DNA of 64,000 bases from NCBI GenBank assembly GCA_030272585.1, contig BSYQ01000010.1, forward strand, positions 3,534,001 to 3,598,000, in the 5' to 3' direction. Below, piece by piece: positions 28,152 to 32,909 of this stretch. Origin of the DNA: Bryopsis sp. KO-2023 (Eukaryota > Chlorophyta > Ulvophyceae > Bryopsidales > Bryopsidaceae). A program made the translations under genes and the position numbers. The notes under the pieces are model-generated. The model had not been told where the DNA came from, made no database searches, and was given only the letters and a program-made list of their open reading frames with translations. Numbering within the stretch: position 1 is the first letter of the stretch; every line of letters starts with the position of its first letter.

Positions 28152-29042
28152 ATGATCCCATCTTGGGTCTTGGTATTTACCACACCCGCTCCCTTGCGCG
28201 TCTATACAATGCTCGGCAATCTACGGGAAGGTTTCTCGTCACTGAAAGGCTCCAGCCCCCATCTCTATCTGGTACTCCTCGTGAACGTCCTCGACACTTT
28301 TTCAAGATGCGTGCAGCTAGTTCTGTGCCCTCTCTTTTTGACGAACAAGTTGGGCATTCGTGACACTCAAGCTGGTTTCTCGTGTGGCCTATGGATGACG
28401 TTTATCGCGCTTAGCACCATCTTTTTGTCCCCTGTCGCCGACTTCTTGGGTGTCAAAAAGAGCTTGGTAGTGGGCTTCGGTCTGGCAGCAATCGGACGCG
28501 CTTTGATGGCTTTCGCACAGAGCACGACGACAATATACATTTCACTGTATGTCGTGATGCCTGTCGCTCAAGGATTTATCTCAACGATGGTGGTCGTCGG
28601 GGTCAAGCGCTACGCCAATCCAGCTGGCCGCAGTTTCGCTTATGGGTTGTTCTGCTCCTCTAAAAACGTCGCAGTCTTGATGTCTGCGGTCCTGTTGGAC
28701 GTTTTTCGAAGAACCTTGGTGAACGGGTTGAAACTGGGCGCGTGGGGCCCGGACTCCCCGCTGAACGCTGGGATGAGGCTTTACCTGTTTGTGGCGGCGA
28801 TATGCACGAGTTTCGCGTTCGTTTTGGCCTTGTTCTTGGACGACGGGGAGCGCGCCGATGATGCGGACGCTGAAGCGATCAGCGAAACAGAAACTACTAA
28901 AACTCCTGCGTCCAGGCGTGGAAAAGTTCTCAGTTTTGTCGGCGAGCTGAAGGATTTATGGTCGGTCAACCTGCTGAAATACATGATCGTCTGTGCGTTG
29001 ACGAGCAACCTGACTCTGCTATTCGACCACGTGGAGAACACC
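28152..29042 (+). pseudogene. MFS transporter, 5' part, cut by transposon insertion
   Basis: Amino-terminal ~297 codons of a major-facilitator membrane transporter. Several membrane spans are visible (for example LYLVLLVNVLDTFSRCV, SLVVGFGLAAIGRALM, LYLFVAAICTSFAFVLALFL), with an acidic loop (DDGERADDADAE) before MIVCALTSNLTLLF. The ATG at 28152 is the first in frame (another at 28209). The frame is open until the insertion at 29042. It resumes in 32878-32909 and from 55758, in the same reading frame once inserts and target duplications are removed, so the gene was intact before transposition. The substrate is unknown. Confidence 0.85.
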
Positions 29043-29053
29043 TGTCATCGCTC

Positions 29054-29195
29054 AATATTTTGACGTTACATGAACGCATAACAAACAACCATACAAACCG
29101 CCAAGAATAGAGAATTGTTTAATACCGCTGTTGATCTATCTCTCCGTCCGAGAACTTCCTAATCATTCTTGGACACCAAAGGATTTGTCGACCAC
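29054..29195 (-). repeat. 3' LTR of the SH3/integrase element
   Basis: Matches 32736-32877 over its whole length. On its outer side it carries 11 extra bases (29043-29053, TGTCATCGCTC) absent next to the other LTR; the same 11 bases occur just inside this LTR at 29199-29209. Confidence 0.85.
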
Positions 29196-29255
29196 AATTG
29201 TCATCGCTCCACTTCGCTTCCACTAGCAAATCTCCGAAAATAAAAAAACTTCCCG

Positions 29256-30485
29256 CTATTCCGATATTTTTTGTAAATCCTCCAAACCCATGCGTCGTTT
29301 TTCTCTTCCCAACACAATCGTTGCTAATCTCCATTCACTATCTATTCCATGAATTTGCCATACCGTTTTCGAGGCTAATGGATCTAAACTCTTCCTTCTC
29401 AACAAACGAAATCGAACAAAATCCCCCACTACAAAATCAAAATTGCTCGAGCGAGAATGTTTTTTTTCAAAAGCCCTTTGTCTTTTTGCCTGGACTAATG
29501 ATATTTGCCTCTTTGCTTCACTCCAAAGATCCTCTAAAGGTAATTCACTTCTTTGTAAGTAAAACTCCCCACTTACTGCAATCATAGCCTTCATTCCATA
29601 AGCCAATTCATAGGGGGAAAGTCCAGTGGTAGTGTGAGGAGCACAATTATGACTCACCACAATTCTCCCTAAAACTTTTGGCCATTGCTTGCTGATATGA
29701 TTCCTCTCAAGAAGAACACATCTAATCCTTTTCTTAACATCCCCAATTGTAGCTTCAACATTACCATTGCTTTGCGGATGCAATGGTCTACTGTGGACAT
29801 GCCTAATGCCTTGTTCCACCAACAATATTGAAAATCCACCATCGAATTCCCCACCATTGTCGGATCTAATATATTGAGGTTTTGGATATTTCCCCAAAAT
29901 CTCCTGTTGAAACCATGTTCTAACCGTCTCTGAAGTTTTATCTGGTATTATAGTAACCACAAGAAACTTTGAAAAAAGATCCAATGCCACAGCAATATAT
30001 TTATACCCACATTCACTAATTGGTAATTGGGCTAAATCCACAGCCCACCCAACAAAAGGTTGGTCTGGACCCTTGTCCTGAATAAGGCTTTTTGGGGTAT
30101 TCCATTTAGACCTATTGCAACTGCAAGCTTCGCATTCGTTCAAAACCTCTTTCACTGACCCAGTCAAATCTGACCAATAATATCTCTGCCTAAGAAACCG
30201 AAGGCATTTGTCCCTGAGGTGCCCCAGACCAAGGTGCACATTTTTAACAAGTGACACTCTTGTTTCTGGCCTTGGCACAATTCTTGAAAGAAGGCCTTTA
30301 TCTTTTTTCCACAAAATCGGACCTCGAAATTCGTAAGTCTTTTTCTTAGCAAGGATTCTATCCCTTTCCGCATGCGAACCACTTAACCTTTCACCATATT
30401 GCAAGTATCTAAGACTTGCCGCGTCTTTCCATATATCGTACACCATTTTTTTATCCAAACAAAAGAACCACTCTTGTTCCAACAC
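29256..30485 (-). CDS. Retroviral-type integrase (gypsy-like), stand-alone ORF
   Basis: 409-codon ORF. It has an HHCC zinc finger (HLGLGH ... CEAC) near residues 80-125 and then a DDE catalytic core: Asp in WAVDLAQLP, Asp in IRSDNGGEF, and Glu in NGNVEATI, with 34 residues between the last two. The C-terminal domain has the FVVGDFVRFRLLRR pattern. The family inserts element DNA into the genome. No ATG exists at the 5' end (the track position is GTG); the frame stays open back to a TGA at 30545-30543, just after the upstream ORF's stop, so expression may need frameshifting or re-initiation. The ~30 residues upstream of 30485 could be the remnant end of a deleted RNase H region. Confidence 0.9.
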   Translation of the reverse strand: MLEQEWFFCLDKKMVYDIWKDAASLRYLQYGERLSGSHAERDRILAKKKTYEFRGPILWKKDKGLLSRIVPRPETRVSLVKNVHLGLGHLRDKCLRFLRQRYYWSDLTGSVKEVLNECEACSCNRSKWNTPKSLIQDKGPDQPFVGWAVDLAQLPISECGYKYIAVALDLFSKFLVVTIIPDKTSETVRTWFQQEILGKYPKPQYIRSDNGGEFDGGFSILLVEQGIRHVHSRPLHPQSNGNVEATIGDVKKRIRCVLLERNHISKQWPKVLGRIVVSHNCAPHTTTGLSPYELAYGMKAMIAVSGEFYLQRSELPLEDLWSEAKRQISLVQAKRQRAFEKKHSRSSNFDFVVGDFVRFRLLRRKSLDPLASKTVWQIHGIDSEWRLATIVLGREKRRMGLEDLQKISE

Positions 30486-30552
30486 GATAGAAGGTAGAGA
30501 ATAAAACCCCGCAATATAAGCATATGAGATCCTCGAATCAAATCACTTTTCA

Positions 30553-31929
30553 TTAAGATCTAAAAGGAAATCTTGTGCGAAAAAAAGAATCGTGCAAATT
30601 CCAATTAAAATGCCGGTAATAGGGCCACCAGTAAAATTCTGGCCAAGGAGATTGCATCCAAGAAATCAATGGCAATCTACCCTGTACGTGTCCTGGAATT
30701 TGCCAGTCAGGAAATTTCTGACCATCTCTAAAATGTGTAGGAGAACAGCTTACATTTCTTTGTCGATTTCTTTGTCGTCTCCTGTTTCTCCTCCTCACTC
30801 TTGATTCAAATTGATCAGTTCGCATCATTTGCTCGTTCTCCTTTTTCTTGCAATCAGATTCCATCCCGCTTTTTGATCCTTGGCTTGGTAATTTCTCCTT
30901 TTGTACAAATGCATCTCTTGGATGTTCTTCTTTGGGTTTGAGATGCTCTTTAATAACATCTGAAGACAACTTGAAAGGTCTTCTGCTTCTTTTCCAGCCA
31001 CCATCCGAATGTGCGTCCCGTGCTCGCTTCAATTCCATATCCAAGTTTTTTAAAGAATCAGCCCTCAATCTGAGAATCTCTTTCTCTAAAGCTTGAATTT
31101 TTTCCACATCTTTTTCCCACAATCTGAAAATCTTCTCAAGGTTTTCGCCCCTATTTTCCACAATCTTCATGCTTCGTTGTACATCTGAGAAAAAAAACCT
31201 TTTCTTTTCCTGATCGGCCTTTATTTGACAATGCCATTGTACAGGAGAAAAATTCACCATTTCTGGTTGCCTATCATATCTCCCTTTCCTACTTTCACAC
31301 TGAAAATTCATTGGATGATGTCTTTGGATGATTTTAGGGATTTCAAGAATCGAAGAGCACAACAAATTGCAATCCCTAATCTCATATTTTTGATCTCTCA
31401 TTTCTCCTTCCGTTTGACATCCAATAGAAAACTGGACATCATTCAAAAAAGAATCATCCACTGATTCCATGTAAGAAAAAGGTATCAAACCTTCTACACC
31501 ACTTTGTAATTTCACCAAAACTTGCCCATTATTTTTCTCCTCCACAACTCGTACAATCTCTCCTTTTCCCACAGAAATCTCCCCGGAAAAGCCACCAGAA
31601 AACTCAGTTAAAATTCTGCCATATTCAATTTTGTGTGAGAAAACAACTGGATCAGAACTACGAAGATTCTGATGCAATTTTTCAGGTTTAGAAAAGCTTC
31701 CTTGAAAAACCTGAGGTGGGGATGCCATAACCTTTTTTTTCTCCCCAATTTTCTGAAGATAGGACGAAGGAATCAAACCAATTTTATCATCCCTTTTGGA
31801 TTGTACTGAAGTCCAACCCTGATCACACTCTTCCAAGATGATAACAATCTCATTTTTCTGAACTGAAAGCTCCTCTGCAAATTCTGCCCCAAAGTCGTGC
31901 AAAACTCTTCCGTGTTCTTTTTTCTCCAT
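30553..31929 (-). CDS. Double SH3-domain, Arg-rich protein (Gag position)
   Basis: 458-aa ORF starting at ATG 31929. Two SH3-like modules: residues ~6-60 (VLHDFGAEFAEELSVQKNE, then GWTSV and GLIPSSYL) and ~100-150 (YGRILTEFSGGFSGEISVGK ... GLIPFSYM). A charged helical segment follows near residues 240-300 (ENLEKIFRLWEKDVEKIQAL). Near 390-405 there is an Arg-rich patch (RVRRRNRRRQRNRQRN), and the tail is Trp/Tyr/Phe-rich. Position and basic patch suit a Gag-like nucleic-acid packaging protein, but no zinc knuckle or known Gag fold is visible. SH3 domains normally bind proline-rich peptides, so this may tether host or element proteins. The function is inferred. Confidence 0.75.
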   Translation of the reverse strand: MEKKEHGRVLHDFGAEFAEELSVQKNEIVIILEECDQGWTSVQSKRDDKIGLIPSSYLQKIGEKKKVMASPPQVFQGSFSKPEKLHQNLRSSDPVVFSHKIEYGRILTEFSGGFSGEISVGKGEIVRVVEEKNNGQVLVKLQSGVEGLIPFSYMESVDDSFLNDVQFSIGCQTEGEMRDQKYEIRDCNLLCSSILEIPKIIQRHHPMNFQCESRKGRYDRQPEMVNFSPVQWHCQIKADQEKKRFFFSDVQRSMKIVENRGENLEKIFRLWEKDVEKIQALEKEILRLRADSLKNLDMELKRARDAHSDGGWKRSRRPFKLSSDVIKEHLKPKEEHPRDAFVQKEKLPSQGSKSGMESDCKKKENEQMMRTDQFESRVRRRNRRRQRNRQRNVSCSPTHFRDGQKFPDWQIPGHVQGRLPLISWMQSPWPEFYWWPYYRHFNWNLHDSFFRTRFPFRS

Positions 31930-32735
31930 TGTTTTATATTCCCAGAATTTTGTTTAACTTTGTTTTATATATATAAAATTTTGTCCACAGACCCGTTTTC
32001 CTAAAACTATCAATTTTTAGAAAAGAAAGGGAAACACCTGAAGATTTCTTTTAGAACCCAGAAGTTCTCCAATATCTTTCACTGTGTTTTTTTTTTTTAA
32101 CTTCCGCACAACCTAAAATAAAAAGACTCAACCTTTCGAAGAAAAGGGAGTTCACACAAGGAAAAAACCAACCCCAACCAGAAACTTAGAGCTCAAGAAA
32201 ATTTTGCAGCTCTACAAAATAAAAACACCACCCAGAAAAAACAAAAAGAAAAAAACTCAATTCTGCCAAGGGAAAATAAAGACCTATACAAAAATTTCCA
32301 GAAGTTGTTTTCCTACAAAAATGGATCCAGTTGAATCTACTACCTTCCACAGAAGGGAGAAAGCAATAAAATCCTTCAAAATATCAAGGAAAAAGAAAAT
32401 AAAACCCCTCCTGTGATTTCCAAATTAAAAAAACCCGTTTCAGATCGAGTCAAATGATCACTCTTACGATCACAGTAAGTATCAATCTTGGTAGATCGAT
32501 ATCTCCTTCGAAACTCGTCGAATGTCTCTGCTTCGAAGTCGACAGGCTTCCTTGGGTCGAGAGGTTAGGATTAGACTCCAAGATCACTCGAAACGGATGA
32601 GAATTGGGATAAAAATCGACCAAAACAAAAAAGGGCTGGGACGTATTCGTCTCCACGCCTCGCGTCCGTGCGTAAAGGAGGCAATCGCCTTCCACTCACT
32701 CGCTACAGGAACGTTTGAGCTGTGCTCCGAAACCA

Positions 32736-32877
32736 AATATTTTGACGTTACATGAACGCATAACAAACAACCATACAAACCGCCAAGAATAGAGAATTGT
32801 TTAATACCGCTGTTGATCTATCTCTCCGTCCGAGAACTTCCTAATCATTCTTGGACACCAAAGGATTTGTCGACCAC
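32736..32877 (-). repeat. 5' LTR of the SH3/integrase element
   Basis: Same ~142-bp sequence as the 3' LTR. On the minus strand it begins GTGGTCGAC and runs directly into the primer-binding site TGGTTTCGGAGCACAGC. Confidence 0.85.
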
Positions 32878-32909
32878 ACACCCTCCCCAAGTATCAAATC
32901 CGCGCTTTC
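32878..32909 (+). pseudogene. MFS transporter fragment between two insertions
   Basis: A 27-bp strip of host exon plus the 5-bp duplication, encoding LPKYQIRAF in frame with the 5' part. It is left between the LTR element and element X, and ends in the CGCTTTC duplicated at 55751-55757. Confidence 0.85.

What the first reader, a model, noticed from the sequence alone, without database searches (positions are those of the whole stretch)
29043..32877. LTR element encoding a double-SH3 protein and an integrase but no reverse transcriptase
Seen: near-identical ~142-bp direct repeats, host duplication, a primer-binding-site match beside the 5' LTR, one ORF with two SH3-like modules in the Gag position, and a complete HHCC/DDE integrase ORF with only 67 nt between them. 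No RT, RNase H or protease is anywhere in the 3.8 kb. Known: non-autonomous LTR elements normally keep Gag or nothing, and stand-alone gypsy-type integrases are usually TIR transposons (Ginger-like), not LTR-flanked. I know of no described element pairing SH3 domains with an LTR-borne integrase. Inference: either a new integrase-retaining parasite of an autonomous relative, or a deletion derivative of a full element whose Gag carries SH3 domains.
Basis: partly seen in the sequence, partly recalled or inferred. Interest (0 to 1): 0.88.

Follow-up and report, generated by a model that had tools for sequence, protein, structure and literature searches.

The report
Integrase half of a split retrotransposon
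The window holds a jumping gene that kept the enzyme for inserting DNA but has no copying enzyme, and the same genome holds related elements with the copying enzyme but apparently no inserting enzyme, which suggests that two half-elements complete each other.

Summary
Confirmed and extended. Window 29043-32878 (minus strand) is an LTR element with identical 143-bp LTRs, a 4-bp TSD, an exact 12-nt PBS for the host's initiator-Met tRNA, a double-SH3 ORF1 and a complete HHCC/DDE integrase (IN), but no RT, RNase H or protease. It is not a lone deletion: five copies share the layout, and five further IN families lack RT in the DNA held. The genome also holds elements with Gag-protease and RT-RNase H but no IN: one read in full, and a second family of 22 full-length RT ORFs, of which one 3' end was read. 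Both classes carry, where a polypurine tract should be, a same-sense likeness of the 5' half of tRNA-iMet; the one full RT+IN gypsy examined does not. Of 66 strict genome hits (reversed control 0), 23 are tRNA genes and 41 of the other 43 follow ORFs of these RT or IN families. The fully read RT-only LTR is homologous to two IN-only LTRs. Best reading: complementary half-elements. A second oddity, also in a full gypsy, is a short block after the 3' LTR only, best explained by end-joining before integration. Mechanisms are inferred, not shown.

The parts
29043..32878 (-). whole element (3836 bp), IN-only LTR retroelement, fam1
29039..29042 (.). target site duplication CACC, 3' side of element
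32879..32882 (.). target site duplication CACC, 5' side of element
32736..32878 (-). 5' LTR (A1), 143 nt, starts TGTGG, ends CAAAATATT directly at the PBS
32724..32735 (-). primer binding site TGGTTTCGGAGC, 12-nt complement of the tRNA-iMet 3' end incl. CCA
30553..31929 (-). ORF1, 458 aa, two SH3 domains; coil-like and basic stretches by eye; no CCHC knuckle by pattern
31753..31908 (-). SH3 domain 1 (residues 8-59)
31465..31584 (-). SH3 domain 2, best SH3_2 stretch (residues 116-155)
29256..30446 (-). integrase ORF, 396 aa, HHCC and DDE present
29209..29238 (-). same-sense likeness of the tRNA-iMet 5' half (TTCGGAG..AGTGGAAGCGAAGTGG), in the place of a polypurine tract
29199..29209 (-). B1, GAGCGATGACA, directly upstream of the 3' LTR
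29197..29198 (-). 2-nt spacer AT between B1 and 3' LTR
29054..29196 (-). 3' LTR (A2), identical to A1
29043..29053 (-). B2, GAGCGATGACA, terminal 11 nt present after the 3' LTR only; ends ..CA

Best explanation
An LTR retroelement that encodes its own integrase plus an SH3 adaptor or nucleocapsid-like ORF1 and borrows Gag, protease, RT and RNase H in trans from RT elements of the same genome that lack integrase and must in turn borrow one. Shown: anatomy, copies, PBS, recurrence of RT-less and IN-less layouts, the shared tRNA-half motif, LTR homology of the C4 RT-only element with the fam4 and fam6 IN-only elements. Inferred: (1) tRNA-iMet primes the minus strand at 32724-32735; (2) the RT lineage of the RT-only elements uses the tRNA-half motif as its plus-strand start signal, DNA starting at the G of B1; (3) the linear cDNA then reads B1-NN-A1...B1-NN-A2; (4) its right end (A2) is joined to its left end (B1), giving A2|B-NN-A1; (5) the element's integrase cuts this inverted-repeat-like junction and inserts the DNA with a 4-bp TSD, leaving B2 at the right end. 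Integrase is kept because it must match the element's own ends, whereas RT reads signals that the families share.
For: Retro-copying: A1 and A2 differ by 0,1,0,0,1 nt within the five copies but by 1-7 between copies; exact PBS. RT-less layout: six IN families, no RT in the 11 IN-only loci searched. IN constraint: dN/dS 0.11-0.12 for C19 against C10, C2, C14. RT-only partner: L065 has Pfam protease and RVT_1, no rve, no IN by tblastn; 22 further full-length RT ORFs, 20 of 22 with a Gag relative within 2.5 kb upstream; the one 3' end read goes from RT stop into motif and LTR. Shared signal: 66 motif hits vs 0 reversed; 23 tRNA genes, 31 after ORFs of the two RT families, 10 after IN-only ORFs, 2 unassigned; all 24 full-length RT hits of these families have it. 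LTR of RT-only C4 vs fam4 z=25.9 and fam6 z=27.3, above fam4-fam6 (13.8). End-joining: the A2|B2 join varies by single nucleotides. Ends differ by IN clade.
Against: No expression, particle or transposition data. No RT-only element with a fam1-type LTR was found, so the window's own helper is not identified. Full gypsies with RT and IN are present; the iMet PBS 12-mer occurs about 2000 times and a full gypsy also has the A2|B2 block, so they could be the helpers. Only one RT-only element was read whole; for the 22-copy family the absence of IN rests on one 3' end and on ORF and motif positions. Searches scored 105 of 1436 IN candidates and 80 of 1563 RT candidates. dN/dS of close pairs is 0.53-0.79 on few changes. 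A cofold test of the motif with the tRNA 3' half was not beyond shuffles in 7 of 8 families. IN-only clades do not form one group apart from full gypsies. Absence of the motif in full gypsies was read in one 3' end plus the genome-wide pattern only.
Confidence: 0.62

Rival explanations
1. Ordinary non-autonomous LTR element mobilised by full RT+IN gypsy elements; the intact IN and the RT-only elements are incidental or separate parasites.
For: Full gypsies are present, the same 12-nt PBS occurs 1034+979 times vs 6+5 for the reversed pattern, and one full gypsy has B1-NN-A2-B2. The 22-copy RT family has an LTR start like the full gypsy's (z 7.9), so it may well borrow a gypsy IN.
Against: The one full gypsy 3' end read has a purine tract and no tRNA-half motif (score 20, shuffles 24-32); 41 of 43 non-tRNA motif hits lie next to ORFs of the RT-only and IN-only families. 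IN is intact and constrained between C19 and the others, unneeded if gypsy IN served.
Confidence: 0.22
2. Ginger-type DNA transposon that happens to have terminal direct repeats.
For: Stand-alone gypsy-like IN, ends TGTNR, 4-bp TSD (Ginger features from passages of PMC2836005).
Against: iMet PBS flush with the 5' LTR, LTR pairs homogenised per copy, no inverted repeats of 20 nt or more found.
Confidence: 0.04
3. Dead deletion derivative of a full element that lost RT.
For: Two full gypsies here keep RT-RH and IN in separate ORFs, so loss of one ORF could leave ORF1 and IN intact.
Against: Seven dispersed copies with TSDs in fam1 and fam2, IN frame open in six of them and broken in the nested C6 copy; four further families.
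Confidence: 0.07
4. On the motif only: the host tRNA-iMet 5' fragment itself primes the plus strand, or the motif pairs with the tRNA 3' half and tethers the primer to the RNA 3' end, instead of being an RT-lineage start signal in the element RNA.
For: Colinear match to tRNA nt 1-29 ending at the presumed DNA start; nt 1-7, 14-20 and 26-29 are kept in 7-8 of 8 families.
Against: The spacing between the two blocks varies (6-13 nt vs 5 in the tRNA) and nt 24 matches in 2 of 8, awkward for a tRNA primer; cofold test inconclusive, 1 of 8 families below 0.05.
Confidence: 0.3

Closest known systems
Complementary non-autonomous pararetroviruses ePVCVL/ePVCVL2 of rice (PMC5491270)
   Same: Two defective retroelements with complementary gene sets and shared regulatory sequences, proposed as mutualists (abstract and section 8 read)
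   Different: Pararetroviruses; the missing part there is the CP domain, not an RT versus IN split
RLG_Cereba / RLG_Quinta LTR pair of einkorn (PMC11302176)
   Same: LTR families sharing PBS and LTR ends, one cross-mobilised by the other (passages read)
   Different: Cereba encodes all proteins and Quinta GAG plus an unknown domain; neither is IN-only or RT-only
Ginger DNA transposons (PMC2836005)
   Same: Stand-alone gypsy-like IN, TGTNR ends, 4-bp TSD in Ginger1 (passages read)
   Different: Terminal inverted repeats; cut-and-paste DNA transposons
Helenus TRIM LTR elements with tRNA-like sequence (PMC10886601)
   Same: Non-autonomous LTR elements containing tRNA-derived sequence (abstract read)
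   Different: There the tRNA-like sequence is in the LTR and proposed as a pol III promoter; here a 5' half only, outside the LTR, at the plus-strand start position, in coding elements
DIRS/PAT split direct repeats (recalled, not read)
   Same: A1-internal-B1-A2-B2 order of direct repeats
   Different: DIRS uses a tyrosine recombinase and makes no TSD (recalled); here DDE IN with 4-5-bp TSD

Membership tests
LTR retrotransposon (Ty3/Gypsy-like) | long terminal direct repeats rewritten per copy | tested here: met
LTR retrotransposon (Ty3/Gypsy-like) | tRNA PBS next to 5' LTR | tested here: met
LTR retrotransposon (Ty3/Gypsy-like) | polypurine tract next to 3' LTR | tested here: not met
   replaced by the tRNA-iMet 5'-half motif, itself purine-rich in part
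LTR retrotransposon (Ty3/Gypsy-like) | gypsy-type integrase | tested here: met
   rve and H2C2 above cut-off
LTR retrotransposon (Ty3/Gypsy-like) | encodes RT-RNase H (autonomous member) | tested here: not met
LTR retrotransposon (Ty3/Gypsy-like) | TSD from DDE integration | tested here: met
   10 of 10 copies with both flanks held (4 bp in 8, 5 bp in 2)
Ginger DNA transposon | terminal inverted repeats of about 40-270 bp (Ginger1) | tested here: not met
   no inverted repeat of 20 nt or more; only short imperfect end similarity by eye
Ginger DNA transposon | stand-alone integrase-like transposase | tested here: met
DIRS-like (split direct repeats) | A1-internal-B1-A2-B2 repeat order (recalled) | tested here: met
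DIRS-like (split direct repeats) | tyrosine recombinase, no TSD (recalled) | tested here: not met
   DDE IN and TSD present; Pfam lists no tyrosine recombinase for either ORF
GAG-only, TRIM or LARD type non-autonomous LTR element | lacks integrase (recalled) | tested here: not met
Reciprocal split retrotransposon pair (proposed here) | partner with RT and no IN, sharing cis signals | tested here: inconclusive
   met for fam4/fam6 with L065; for the window's fam1 only the motif and PBS are shared, no RT-only LTR match
Reciprocal split retrotransposon pair (proposed here) | mobilisation of each by the other | not testable with these tools
   needs experiment

The most novel reading that the evidence does not exclude
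A naturally bipartite retrotransposon system: RT and integrase live on separate, reciprocally dependent LTR elements marked by a shared tRNA-iMet 5'-half signal that replaces the polypurine tract, and integration proceeds from an end-joined circle junction, the route once proposed and then abandoned for retroviruses.
Probability: 0.3. Interest if true: 0.93.

Novelty: new variant of a known kind. Interest (0 to 1): 0.82.

Why it matters
LTR retrotransposons are taught as units carrying RT and integrase together, with parasites that lose both. Here the two enzymes appear to have been parted onto different elements, each with several copies, so that integrase can be kept because it must fit the element's own ends while RT is pooled. 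That makes a multipartite retroelement directly testable. The 3' block B2, also seen in a full gypsy of this genome, may record a joined-end intermediate in integrated copies, which would reopen the circle-junction question in a setting where it can be read from sequence. The tRNA-half motif suggests a plus-strand start signal unlike a polypurine tract.

Tried and rejected
Ginger-like DNA transposon: rejected on PBS, LTR homogenisation and lack of long inverted repeats. Lone deletion derivative: rejected on copies and families. PBS sharing as proof of partnership: dropped, the 12-mer occurs 2013 times. Terminal B block as a hallmark of split elements: dropped, a full gypsy has it too. Motif pairing in trans with the tRNA 3' half: cofold not beyond shuffles in 7 of 8 families. 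L033-L036 (404-aa IN with a PBS 12-mer upstream) as possible IN-only LTR elements: no LTR pair found, left open. Protein searches of public collections: the SH3 protein gave 1 weak hit (a yeast SH3 protein), IN 9 hits of 24-38% identity, the L065 RT 17 hits of 24-30% identity; that tool gives no genomic context, so split elements elsewhere were not tested, and the host species was not identified. Literature: searches listed no RT/IN split pair that I recognised; only titles and abstract starts of the listed rows were seen, in an openly licensed library. Troyka (PMC12440569, abstract) and a plus-strand review (PMC3185511, passages) were looked at and not used.
Full report
What is there. The window lies at C10:3534001-3598000 of an unnamed eukaryotic-type assembly of 91 Mb in 28 contigs. 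On the minus strand, 29043-32878 is an LTR element: A1 (32736-32878), PBS (32724-32735), ORF1 (30553-31929), IN (29256-30446), a tRNA-like motif (29209-29238), B1 (29199-29209), a 2-nt spacer, A2 (29054-29196) and B2 (29043-29053), flanked by CACC duplications. A1 and A2 are identical. ORF1 has two SH3 stretches by Pfam and IN has HHCC and DDE residues. Two RT proteins used as queries found no RT here.

Copies. Five copies of the family were found: C10 (window), C2, C14, C19 and C6, the last broken up by nested insertions and with stops in IN. Within copies the two LTRs differ by 0, 1, 0, 0 and 1 nt; between copies by 1 to 7, as expected if both LTRs are rewritten from one template at each move. 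In five further elements with both ends held (C3, C6:2.3M, fam3, fam6, RT-only C4) the two LTRs are identical. All ten have a TSD, 4 bp in eight and 5 bp in two (fam3, C4), once B2 is counted in. dN/dS (NG86) of IN is 0.11-0.12 for C19 against C10, C14 and C2, but 0.53-0.79 for the close pairs C10-C2, C10-C14 and C3-C6:2.3M, which differ little. C19 shares with the others the LTR plus the 12-nt PBS, a 250-nt stretch and the IN-to-end part, but has a different ORF1 with one SH3.

Related IN-only families. IN homology (105 of 1436 candidates scored) led to fam2 (C3, C6:2.3M; 55-56% IN identity), fam3 (C2:627k), fam4 (C7), fam5 (C2:532k) and fam6 (C2:776k). All have rve and H2C2 matches, though fam4 rve (30.3 bits, cut-off 32.6) and fam6 H2C2 (20.6, cut-off 25.5) fall short. 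All have an ORF1 upstream. No RT was found in the 11 loci searched; these cover four fam1 copies, fam2 and fam3 from LTR to LTR, fam6 but for about 0.2 kb, and fam4 and fam5 in part; the nested C6 copy was not searched. ORF1 is modular: a CCHC knuckle in fam2 and fam6 and the end of one at the locus edge in fam4 (by eye), SH3 in fam1, a fam1-homologous protein without SH3 in fam3 (35% identity). The two fam2 copies share the LTR plus 12 nt and the IN end but differ in ORF1, as in fam1. A tree gives three IN-only clades (fam1+2, fam3+5, fam4+6; bootstrap 99-100); their relation to two full-gypsy INs is unresolved.

Primer. The 12-mer TGGTTTCGGAGC follows the 5' LTR without spacer in the 9 copies checked and in fam6. 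A genome search for a tRNA with the matching acceptor found tRNA-iMet genes (anticodon CAT by eye), 23 by the later count, ending ..CTGGCTCCGAA and, in the one gene fetched, discriminator A. The 12-mer is found 1034+979 times against 6+5 for the reversed pattern, so sharing it proves no partnership.

The tRNA-half motif. Directly before B1 the 11 copies of the six IN-only families carry a colinear, same-sense likeness of nt 1-29 of tRNA-iMet (local scores 30-37; each above all 500 mononucleotide shuffles of its region, narrowest margin 31 against 30; the region was located by a pattern that covers part of the motif, so the score is not fully independent). Across eight families nt 1-7, 14-20 and 26-29 are kept in 7-8 of 8; nt 9, 13 and 24 in 1-2 of 8, and the spacing varies. 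A strict pattern finds 66 places, reversed control 0: 23 tRNA genes; of the other 43, 31 follow an ORF or ORF fragment of the two RT families (28 at 8 nt, 2 at 23, 1 at 318), 10 follow an IN-only ORF, 2 were not assigned, of which C2:7784603 has the fam4 end sequence. For this assignment 38 of the 80 RT hits and 12 of the 105 IN hits were entered; the rest belong to other families. All 24 full-length hits of the two RT families have the motif; 7 broken or partial ones do not. fam5 has one mismatch and is missed by the strict pattern. fam1-6 and the 22-copy RT family came from protein homology; the C4 RT element came from a pattern covering B1 and part of the motif. One full RT+IN gypsy 3' end has a purine tract and no motif, and one 3' end of a 495-aa IN group has none.

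RT-only elements. The C4 element (L065) has 5' LTR, PBS, a Gag-protease ORF (gag-asp_proteas 3.8e-9), an RT-RNase H ORF (RVT_1 1.3e-18; RVT_3 0.0013, below cut-off), motif, B1, 3' LTR, B2 and a 5-bp TSD; no IN. A second copy on C6 has an intact RT frame and an interrupted ORF1. Twenty-two further full-length RT ORFs (527 or 566 aa) share 38-39% identity (80 of 1563 candidates scored); 20 of 22 have a Gag relative within 2.5 kb upstream; the one 3' end fetched runs from RT stop into motif, B1 and LTR. No CCHC pattern was found in the L065 proteins, whereas fam2 and fam6 ORF1s have one. The L065 LTR is strongly similar to the fam4 (z 25.9) and fam6 (z 27.3) LTRs, all 163-164 nt; no other split pair exceeds z 13.8. 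For fam1 no RT-only LTR match is known.

The terminal block. The order A1-PBS-...-B1-NN-A2-B2 holds in the 10 copies with both ends held. One full gypsy also has B1 and B2 around A2 (..ATTTGT|GGTTACA); its own A1 was not seen, but the A1 of a similar element, next to the RT-only copy on C5, ends ..ATTTGT at the PBS. In the standard scheme the right cDNA end stops at the PBS boundary, so B2 is not templated there. If plus-strand DNA starts at B1 and the two cDNA ends are joined, A2|B-NN-A1 results, and integrase cutting of that junction gives the observed ends. The A2|B2 join varies: C10, C14, C19, C6 and C6:2.3M join A to the G of B; fam6 starts at a G one place earlier; C2 has the last A base changed; C3 and C4 have one extra A; fam3 lacks the G. 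Such scatter fits end-joining, though later mutation could explain single cases. Retroviral integration from 2-LTR circle junctions was claimed in 1984 and given up after linear DNA proved active (passages of PMC11054761). This step is inference.

Prior art. In what I saw, the nearest are complementary pararetroviruses (PMC5491270, abstract and section 8), Cereba/Quinta (PMC11302176, passages), Ginger (PMC2836005, passages), engineered two-component vectors (PMC2923131, passages) and Helenus (PMC10886601, abstract). The listed rows of nine searches showed no RT/IN split pair.

Limits.

Noticed in passing
window 28152-29042: The element adjoins and cuts short an ORF with a Major Facilitator Superfamily match (MFS_1 3.9e-14), so it probably interrupts a host transporter gene.
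   Followed up: partly
L053 1495-3177 (C5:2273753): An MFS transporter ORF with a C-terminal SH3 domain (SH3_1 8.6e-7) was the only hit outside the IN-only families; a possible clue to SH3 capture.
   Followed up: partly
C5:6.91-7.05M, C9:5.58-5.67M, C10:5.08-5.13M: The 23 tRNA-iMet genes found lie in three arrays spaced mostly about 11 kb (25 kb on C10), near the contig ends on C5 and C10; possibly larger tandem units, but the rRNA search gave no answer.
   Followed up: no
L033-L036: Four IN ORFs of about 400 aa have the PBS 12-mer upstream (close by in L034-L036, about 1 kb away in L033) without a clear LTR pair; nature unknown.
   Followed up: partly
C1, C3, C4, C7, C9 and others, 477-522-aa IN ORFs: Over 25 copies of another IN ORF group (about 29% identity); the one 3' end read (L067) lacks the tRNA-half motif.
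   Followed up: partly
L066 700-1300: Shortly after one RT-only copy lies the 5' LTR and PBS of another element whose LTR start resembles the full gypsy LTR.
   Followed up: partly
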